64,000 bases of DNA from Synechococcus sp. MVIR-18-1 (lineage in GTDB: Bacteria > Cyanobacteriota > Cyanobacteriia > PCC-6307 > Cyanobiaceae): contig NZ_CP047942.1 of the NCBI RefSeq assembly GCF_014279835.1, positions 1,612,001-1,676,000 on the forward strand, given 5' to 3'. A program made the position numbers and the translations under genes. Position 1 is the stretch's first letter. Every line of letters begins with the position of its first letter. The notes under the pieces are model-generated. The model saw only the letters and a program-made list of their open reading frames with translations, was not told where the DNA came from and did not search any database. Of this stretch, positions 53,347 to 56,552 are shown one piece after another.

Positions 53347-54132
53347 TCAACGTGACGAACAATTTCGATTGATCGATTCAATCGCGCGCATGGCGGCTGC
53401 CGCAGCCTCTTCCACATCACCTTCTCTCCCCGCAAGCGTAAGGCGACCAAACGCTCCAACCGCTTTGACATCCACCAGGGTGATGTTCGAAGACTTCTCA
53501 GCCTCATTCGCAGCAATCAGAACATATCCAGCAGGCTCTGTCTCGAGAATGAACATGCTCATTCCGGCTTCGATCATCGAGCCCCTGCGGTTCAGACGAT
53601 TAATGAGGACGGCATGATCAGGGGTGATGGCACGAATCACTTCGGTCCAACTGACATCGGCGGGGGTTCGTCGGTCGATGGAACTACCAATCGCCTCTAG
53701 AACCACATCACCGGAATGAATCACGGTGCTTTGGTCTCGGTGATAAAGAGCCATGGAGCCAAAAGCACGCTCCACCACCATCTGCCCAAGACGAACATTG
53801 CTGGCCTTGAGAGCAATATCAGTAACGCGATGCACCGCCATCCCTGGTGAAACTTCCATCCATAAACAGGCATCGCCTGGGATCGGTAAAAAGCCCTGAC
53901 TCACCGTCCCCATATAGGCAGCGAGTTGGGGTTGAAGAGAATCTAGAAAGACATATGTGCGCAGTTCAATGGACTGCACGTGGCTGTTTTGTCTCAACAA
54001 CCGTGGGGATTCGCTGTCGGTCGTGACGACACAACTTGCTCCACTCGCCGAGGTGTGTACCTCAGTTCCGGTGACGAGAGCGCTTCCGCCTACTCGCCGC
54101 TCCCGGGCATCGAAGCTGGCGAAGCGATTCAT
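53347..54132 (-). CDS. csoS1D: CsoS1D, tandem-BMC trimeric shell protein
   Basis: This shell protein of 261 residues forms trimers (pseudohexamers) that stack into a gated pore for larger metabolites such as RuBP. After a variable N-terminal 50 residues, two tandem BMC domains follow (first with [19 protein letters not shown], second with [20 protein letters not shown] and [20 protein letters not shown]). It is separate from the main operon, convergent with rdgB, and starts 96 bp from the divergent hypothetical gene. Confidence 0.88.
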
Positions 54133-54228
54133 TGCGGCGATGTTACCGGAAGGTTGCTCACAAAATTCGTCTCGCGACTTGCATCAGCCAACGGAACCGA
54201 TACCGTCCGCGCAAATCGGGAGTGCAGC

Positions 54229-54633
54229 ATGGCAGCCAATCAAACCCATAGCCCAGAAACAACCTCCTTGAGTTCTGAGCTCAGCGCCGAGCAAGCGCTG
54301 GGAATGATCGGAATGGGCTTAATGCAAAAGCTCAATCAGGAAGGCCCAGGTCGTTGGATTTGGAGCGATGCTGAAGATGGTGGTGCTGCCAATCTTGTTG
54401 AGCTGCGCCAGAGACTCGAACTGACATCTCTTGCGATTAAGACAGGGGCTCCACTGAGTACGGCGGAAGTGACCCAATTGCTTGGCATCCGCCCTGGTTC
54501 GGAACAAGTTGAAAGGGGAGGCCTACGGGCGAGCCGATTGAGCAGAAACGTGTGGCGTCTCACCCAGATCGGCATGGATTCATCTCAGTCAACAGGTGGA
54601 TTCGGCGACGATCGTTTCCGTCGTCGCCTTTGA
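54229..54633 (+). CDS. Conserved hypothetical protein next to csoS1D
   Basis: This 134-residue protein starts at ATG 54229. The N-terminus is polar, and the middle has GMIGMGLMQKLNQEGPGRWI followed by LVELRQRLELTSLAIKTGAP. The stretch LSTAEVTQLLGIRPGSEQVERGG resembles a winged-helix or HTH domain, and the tail is SSQSTGGFGDDRFRRRL. I recognise no family. Its position next to csoS1D and divergent to it makes a link with carboxysome function or regulation possible, but there is no direct evidence. Confidence 0.55.
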   Translation: MAANQTHSPETTSLSSELSAEQALGMIGMGLMQKLNQEGPGRWIWSDAEDGGAANLVELRQRLELTSLAIKTGAPLSTAEVTQLLGIRPGSEQVERGGLRASRLSRNVWRLTQIGMDSSQSTGGFGDDRFRRRL

Positions 54634-54655: not shown

Positions 54656-55113
54656 TTAGGAATCAGCCTTTTCGGGGCCGTCATCCTTTGACGTATCCCG
54701 AGAACGGTCATCACTTGAATCCGTTAGCTCTTCAACTTCAAGACAAGCGGTGGTTTCGGCAAGTTGCTCGTGAGCAGCAATCACAGGCGCAGCTTTTGCT
54801 TTCAGTTGCTTAGCTGCTTCCTCGAGGGTCATGGTTTTGTTCTGTCTGATCTGACCAACAAACGTTTCGTAAATCGCAACCTGATCGCGATATTCCTTGA
54901 GTTGAGCGGTTTGGAGTTCAGTTTCAGCCTGATCAAGCGTGGCGAGAGCTTTTTTTAGCGACGCACCAGCAACCTCAGCGATTGCTTTGCAAACGAGATC
55001 GGAGTCTGAGACCACCTCGGCTTGATCTACGACTGCTTTTTTTCCACCGACTGACAGGCCGCCAGTGCCAAACCCAGAGCCAAAACAGCAGGCAAAGCTC
55101 GCAAAGACAACAT
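54656..55113 (-). CDS. Lipoprotein gene split by a -1 shift at A AAA AAG
   Basis: From ATG 55113 the frame reads MLSLRALPAVLALGLALAAC, a lipoprotein signal peptide with lipobox LAAC, and stops (TAG) after 28 residues. The rest (AEVVSDSDLVCKAIAEVAGA onward, with a long coiled coil DQAETELQTAQLKEYRDQV and an acidic tail) lies one base out of frame, where the only usable start is a GTG at 55015. The break is at a run of seven A. A -1 shift at the heptamer A AAA AAG joins both parts into one 152-residue lipoprotein. It could be programmed frameshifting, polymerase slippage, a sequence error or a pseudogene. Confidence 0.6.
55036..55042 (-). other. dnaX-type slippery heptamer A AAA AAG
   Basis: On the minus strand the heptamer A AAA AAG is in the zero frame of the signal-peptide ORF (codons GAA AAA AAG). 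It obeys the X XXY YYZ rule, and a -1 shift continues as GCA GTC GTA into the downstream frame. It is followed nine bases later by the zero-frame stop. Confidence 0.6.

Positions 55114-55247: not shown

Positions 55248-56552
<1,305 letters not shown>

What the first reader, a model, noticed from the sequence alone, without database searches (positions are those of the whole stretch)
54656..55113. Lipoprotein gene interrupted exactly at a canonical A AAA AAG slippery heptamer
The signal peptide with lipobox LAAC and the coiled-coil body are in different frames, and the shift falls at a zero-frame heptamer identical to the E. coli dnaX site. A -1 shift joins them perfectly, while normal decoding gives a 28-residue lipopeptide. 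Programmed frameshifting, polymerase slippage on A7, a one-base sequencing error or a recent pseudogene would all explain it. I saw no strong downstream stem-loop by eye.
Basis: partly seen in the sequence, partly recalled or inferred. Interest (0 to 1): 0.66.

Follow-up and report, generated by a model that had tools for sequence, protein, structure and literature searches.

The report
Frameshifted, decaying cyanobacterial lipoprotein gene
A small lipoprotein gene of a marine cyanobacterium is one base short at a run of A's; its two nearest relatives have damaged the same gene in other ways, so this looks like an ordinary gene being lost rather than a deliberate frameshift switch.

Summary
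On the minus strand, ATG at 55113 opens a lipoprotein signal peptide (LAAC) and stops after 28 codons. The body lies in the -1 frame, and the junction is a zero-frame A AAA AAG.

Programmed frameshifting is not supported. Of 31 genus genomes, 26 have a match: 22 unbroken, 4 broken. Two of the 22 carry this heptamer at this site in an unbroken frame. Intact G001 reads GAA AAA AAG GCA; the window reads GAA AAA AAG CAG, one base short. The window also lacks 63 nt (21 codons), exactly the distance between two short repeats in G007.

The window's genome groups with G027 and G012; all three copies are damaged, by different lesions, while the four species in the neighbouring groups are intact. Selection is relaxed in the trio (omega 0.66 against 0.23, p 1e-4). 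For the window's branch alone the test is inconclusive, and without G012 the pooled omega (0.51) is still below 1. Downstream RNA is not clearly special. A 400-kb comparison with G012 makes a sequencing error unlikely but cannot exclude it. Best reading: a recent indel in a gene being lost.

The parts
55027..55113 (-). Zero-frame ORF: lipoprotein signal peptide with lipobox LAAC, 28 residues, TAG begins 6 nt after the heptamer
   Evidence: matches residues 1-27 of the joined query and of intact relatives
55036..55042 (-). A AAA AAG heptamer in the zero frame, last six A's and the G of an A7G tract; site of the one-base shortfall
   Evidence: alignment with relatives
54656..55048 (-). Body of the lipoprotein, -1 frame relative to the signal peptide, open for 130 codons to its stop
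54972..54982 (-). Junction of a 63-nt (21-codon, in-frame) deletion; one copy of the GCTGAGGT repeat left
   Evidence: in G007 two copies of GCTGAGGTCG lie exactly 63 nt apart
54949..54956 (-). Second A7G tract in the same gene (CTA AAA AAA GCT), frame not disturbed
55266..56552 (+). Divergent neighbour with a nitrogenase component 1 type oxidoreductase domain; called chlN here (name recalled); syntenic anchor and source of the tree
   Evidence: (PF00148)

Best explanation
This is a gene for a small cyanobacterial lipoprotein that was recently broken by the loss of one base at an A7G tract, a spot prone to replication slippage. It lies in a clade in which the gene is being lost. Normal decoding yields a 28-residue prolipopeptide (9 residues from the lipobox cysteine on), and the body is not made in meaningful amounts. 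The heptamer is the ordinary Glu-Lys-Lys coding at that place. Shown: the break, the base and the 63 nt missing relative to relatives, the unbroken frame in 22 genus genomes, and the damaged copies in both sister species. Inferred: that slippage caused the loss, that the gene no longer works, and that the base is truly absent from the living strain.
For: Of 31 genus genomes 26 have a match: 22 unbroken and 4 broken (G000, G027, G012, G010). Intact G001, nearest by the anchor sequence (91.0%), reads GAA AAA AAG GCA GTC; the window reads GAA AAA AAG CAG TCG. G000, G027 and G012 form one clade (96/99; 100/100). G027 has one extra base at the same tract and ATG changed to ATC; G012 lacks the 5' end and more. 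Omega 0.655 in this trio against 0.229 elsewhere, p 1.1e-4; the same under the other topology, 0.654 against 0.231, p 1.3e-4. Losses elsewhere: G010 is broken while its sister G029 is intact; G013, G024 and G026 have both flanking genes and no match between them at E 0.01.
Against: The window's body has no further stop or frame break over 130 codons. On its own branch omega is 0.43, different neither from the one-ratio model (p 0.54) nor from 1 (p 0.16) (0.42-0.46). Without G012, G000 and G027 together give omega 0.51, above the rest (p 0.015) but also below 1 (p 0.021), so these branches saw constraint for part of their length or still do. G027 is a metagenome-assembled genome, so its one-base gain could be an assembly error, and a TTG one codon upstream could replace its ATG.
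Confidence: 0.78

Rival explanations
1. Sequencing or assembly error: the strain has one more base in the tract, and the gene (with its 63-nt deletion) is intact and translated normally.
For: One-base losses at homopolymers are a common error type (general knowledge), and PMC3711429 expects unclustered frameshifts validated by BLASTp to be errors rather than genuine indels (passages). The window's body is otherwise open, and omega on its branch is 0.43.
Against: In 400 kb of the same genome 335 ORFs of sister G012 matched (of 705 offered, which came from 800 kb of G012, half of it mostly not collinear), and 3 frame breaks were called in the window's genome; none was a base lost from a run longer than three. 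Both sister species have damaged this gene too, so a real lesion needs no special pleading.
Confidence: 0.11
2. Recoding rescue ('pseudo-pseudogene'): some ribosomes slip -1 at A AAA AAG, so a little full-length lipoprotein is still made beside the 28-residue peptide.
For: The heptamer is the dnaX-type slippery site and the frame direction is right. The body has no second disabling break, and G000 with G027 keep omega below 1. The 112-nt downstream RNA is the most stable, relative to shuffles, of the seven genomes folded (z -2.61, 1.3% of shuffles), and its outer stem begins about 8 nt after the heptamer. Rescue of a frameshift mutation at an A tract is documented for chloroplast atpB (PMC8254509, abstract and passages).
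Against: Not conserved: 22 of 22 intact genus homologues have no break, and 2 of them carry the heptamer in an unbroken frame. No near hairpin (50 nt z 0.03; 80 nt z -0.36); intact G007 reaches -2.45 at 112 nt; 28 genome-stretch combinations were tried. I see no Shine-Dalgarno-like element at a dnaX-like distance (by eye). One sister lost most of the gene and the other is shifted the other way. In the chloroplast case the mutant tract was 11 A, an AAG in the tract abolished correction, and deletions were poorly corrected.
Confidence: 0.08
3. The body is translated on its own from an internal start (GTG at 55015) as a cytoplasmic protein.
For: An ORF of 119 codons from GTG exists.
Against: All 22 intact genus homologues carry a lipobox-type motif at the front, so a body without it would be misplaced. 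No promoter or ribosome site was looked for.
Confidence: 0.03

Closest known systems
Frameshifted pseudogenes and recent indel mutations (singleton or pseudogene classes of PMC3711429)
   Same: One-base indel at a homopolymer; break not conserved; relatives unbroken or damaged differently
   Different: The body has no second disabling lesion, so it is young or only lately released
E. coli dnaX programmed -1 frameshift (PMC3711429, passages)
   Same: Identical zero-frame heptamer A AAA AAG
   Different: In dnaX the shift gives the shorter product and both products are used, with a Shine-Dalgarno-like element and a hairpin; here the shift would be needed for the long product, and the site is not conserved
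Transcriptional slippage 'pseudo pseudogenes' (PMC1088944, passages)
   Same: A broken ORF whose junction is an A tract
   Different: Those have runs of nine A or T, though the critical length varies among genomes; here A7
Chloroplast atpB frame correction in Oenothera and tobacco (PMC8254509, abstract and passages)
   Same: Indel in an A tract of a coding gene
   Different: There an insertion gives 11 A and full-length protein was detected; an AAG in the tract abolished correction, and deletions were poorly corrected

Membership tests
Programmed frameshift genes (criteria of PMC3711429, Table 1) | Cluster of five or more homologous genes with the frame transition | tested here: not met
   Of 26 genus genomes with a match 22 are unbroken; G000 alone has this break, and G027 another break at the tract
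Programmed frameshift genes (criteria of PMC3711429, Table 1) | Conserved frameshift site | tested here: not met
   Heptamer at the site in 2 of 22 intact genus homologues (G001, G020), where the frame is unbroken
dnaX-type -1 frameshift signal | Zero-frame A AAA AAG at the junction | tested here: met
dnaX-type -1 frameshift signal | Downstream stem at short spacing | tested here: inconclusive
   50 nt z 0.03 and 80 nt z -0.36 show none; the 112-nt fold (z -2.16 and -2.61) has an outer long-range stem about 8 nt after the heptamer, but intact G007 reaches -2.45
dnaX-type -1 frameshift signal | Upstream Shine-Dalgarno-like element | tested here: inconclusive
   Read by eye only; GGTGG abuts the tract instead of lying further upstream
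Transcriptional slippage genes (PMC1088944) | Run of about nine A or T | tested here: not met
   Run is A7
Pseudogene | Disabling lesion absent in relatives | tested here: met
Pseudogene | Relaxed selection | tested here: inconclusive
   Relaxed in the clade of three (p 1.1e-4); G000 alone undecided; G000 with G027 raised but still below 1
Pseudogene | No functional product | not testable with these tools
   Needs proteomics or a reporter

The most novel reading that the evidence does not exclude
After losing one base, the gene still makes some full-length lipoprotein by -1 slippage at A AAA AAG, helped by the downstream fold, so a slippery site that already existed as ordinary Lys-Lys coding has become the only route to the protein: a natural snapshot of how a recoded gene could begin. 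The body without a second lesion and the omega still below 1 fit this, but they fit a recent mutation equally well.
Probability: 0.07. Interest if true: 0.4.

Novelty: new member of a known kind. Interest (0 to 1): 0.14.

Why it matters
It matters little beyond annotation: the locus should be marked as a frameshifted, probably decaying gene. It is a clean example of how a canonical slippery heptamer at a frame break can mislead. The motif is ordinary coding in two intact relatives, the tract looks like a mutation hot spot (two sister genomes have opposite indels there, one of them a MAG), and comparison with relatives is what separates mutation from recoding.

Tried and rejected
Programmed frameshifting was tested by conservation of break and heptamer and by folding, and rejected as the main reading. 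Transcriptional slippage was set aside on tract length (A7 against about nine; PMC1088944, abstract and passages).

Function: Pfam gave only matches below the curated cut-off for the body (best DDRGK, E 0.0029); NCBIfam, given intact G001, likewise (best E 0.0088); the solved-structure search gave one match, CpcN, E 0.0013, residues 44-109, with no single stretch passing, which I take as helical resemblance. No structure prediction was run, and the coiled-coil nature of the body was not tested.

Whether G000 and G012 share the 63-nt deletion by descent is open: the tree joins G012 with G027 (88/93, 85/89), but holding G000 with G012 is not rejected (p-AU 0.11).

Literature, by search listing and abstract starts: 'programmed frameshifting' with 'Synechococcus' gave 3 papers, none titled on this gene; a search on slippage, pseudogenes, homopolymers and cyanobacteria gave 68, 20 listed. 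I make no claim that the locus is undescribed.

Limits of the error control: of the 17 G012 ORFs whose match in G000 held a stop, 12 lie on a same-strand G000 ORF that covers at least 85% of the match, with the stop near an end (differing start or stop choices), and 5 do not, 3 of these opposite a longer ORF. The 24 flagged in the other direction were not inspected. Gene sets are mechanical ORFs, not annotation.

Limits of the selection test: own codon-model script, 8 of the 26 genomes with a match (the seven of the close group and G016), 161 codons, fixed topology; the tree places the neighbour groups otherwise than the topology used, so both were run. The start codon was left out. In G000 23 of 162 codons were blank, the lesion codon among them; in G012 97 of 162.

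Full report
What is there. The gene lies on the minus strand between a short plus-strand ORF ending at 54633, without a Pfam match, and a divergent gene with a nitrogenase-component-1-type domain starting at 55266 (chlN in my naming; PF00148). From ATG at 55113 the zero frame encodes MLSLRALPAVLALGLALAACQSVEKKQS and stops. From the A7G tract on, the -1 frame runs open to 54656. The heptamer A AAA AAG at 55042-55036 is in the zero frame.

Relatives. The joined protein was searched in the 31 genomes of the genus: 26 have a match. Reading the loci in three frames and counting again, 22 have one unbroken frame from a signal peptide with lipobox-type motif through the body. Four are broken: the window's genome G000, G027, G012 and G010. 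Five have no match. G013 and G024, complete genomes, have both flanking genes with only about 235-250 bases between them; G026 has about 170. G014 and G015 are incomplete genomes in which the anchor gene was not found either. In the wider family 69 of 300 genomes drawn have a match; among the loci read outside the genus, G100 and G147 also look broken.

The lesion. Intact relatives of the close group read GAA AAA AAG GCA (G001), GAG CAA AAA GCA (G007) and GAG AAA AAG GCA (G006, G022); the window reads GAA AAA AAG CAG. One base is missing: a G from A7GG, or an A from an ancestral A8G; the data do not decide. The window also lacks 63 nt further down. In G007 two copies of GCTGAGGTCG lie exactly 63 nt apart and bracket the missing block, and the window keeps one copy of GCTGAGGT. 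This is the signature of a deletion between short direct repeats (mechanism inferred).

The clade. A tree from the anchor gene and the sequence after it puts G000, G027 and G012 together (96/99); with part of the other flank added, support is 100/100. All three have damaged copies, each differently. G000 has the one-base loss and the 63-nt deletion. G027 has one extra base at the same tract, which would need the opposite shift, and ATG changed to ATC, though a TTG stands one codon upstream. G012 has no 5' end and several further deletions. G001, G007, G006 and G022, in the neighbouring groups, are intact. G027 appears to be the MAG Synechococcus sp. SP2, since contig length and sequence agree with JAVBIX010000053.1.

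Selection. A codon model with branch classes (own script) gives omega 0.655 for the trio's branches and 0.229 for the rest (p 1.1e-4 against one ratio; p 0.07 against 1), and nearly the same under the alternative topology. Run singly, G012 is 1.34, G027 0.59 and G000 0.43; G000 differs neither from one ratio (p 0.54) nor from 1 (p 0.16). Without G012, G000 and G027 together give 0.51, above the rest (p 0.015) and below 1 (p 0.021). So selection is relaxed in the clade, driven most by G012, but the window's own copy shows a mixture that fits a recent break and does not prove loss of function.

Recoding. A published scheme for prokaryotic frame transitions asks, for a programmed frameshift, for a cluster of at least five genes and a conserved site (PMC3711429, Table 1, passages). 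Neither holds. Two of 22 intact genus homologues, G001 and G020, carry A AAA AAG at the same place in an unbroken frame, so there it is plain Lys-Lys coding. No near hairpin stands out. The 112-nt stretch is mildly stable (z -2.16; -2.61), the lowest z of the seven genomes folded at that length, but intact G007 gives -2.45 and G001 -1.8, and four stretches were tried in each genome. The tract is shorter than the nine A or T linked with transcriptional slippage in many genomes (PMC1088944, abstract and passages). Rescue of a frameshift at an A tract is on record in chloroplasts (PMC8254509, abstract and passages), but with 11 A, and an AAG in the tract abolished it. Some -1 product cannot be excluded.

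Sequencing error. Over 400 kb of the window's genome, of which 359 kb aligns to the 800 kb of G012 taken, 335 of 705 G012 ORFs matched and 3 frame breaks were called in G000; in the other direction 338 of 376 matched and 3 were called. The three in G000 involve a 2-base difference outside a homopolymer, a 108-codon ORF with several indels, and a one-base difference at AA that could lie in either genome. None is a base lost from a run longer than three. Of 17 stop-bearing matches, 12 look like differing start or stop choices. An error is unlikely but not excluded.

Organism. Genome lengths 2,451,974 (window), 2,273,940 (G012) and 2,876,904 (G022) agree with Synechococcus sp. MVIR-18-1 (2.45 Mb), PROS-9-1 (2.27) and ROS8604 (2.88) in the table of PMC10669429 (passages). 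The GC of 400 kb of the window's genome, 53.8%, is near the 53.4% listed for MVIR-18-1. The identification is an inference.

Verdict. A real observation with, most likely, an ordinary cause: a recent one-base loss at a mutation-prone tract, in a gene that this clade is losing.

Noticed in passing
genus-wide locus between the 217-codon ORF and the chlN-like gene (L054, L055, L067, L052): The lipoprotein gene has been lost or broken in several lineages of the genus (the G000/G027/G012 clade, G010, G013/G024, G026), so it is dispensable there; what it does is unknown.
   Followed up: partly
window 54949-54956 (minus strand): A second A7G tract lies in the same gene with an intact frame (CTA AAA AAA GCT).
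   Followed up: no
window 53980-54633 (plus) and 53347-54132 (minus): The plus-strand 217-codon ORF overlaps the well-conserved minus-strand 261-codon ORF by about 150 nt at its start, so its true start may be further in. In G010 and G023 its match falls in two frames.
   Followed up: no
G000 stretch 1560001-1960000 against G012: A 2-base difference outside a homopolymer gives a frame break in a 541-codon ORF of G012; which strand and ORF are real was not examined.
   Followed up: no
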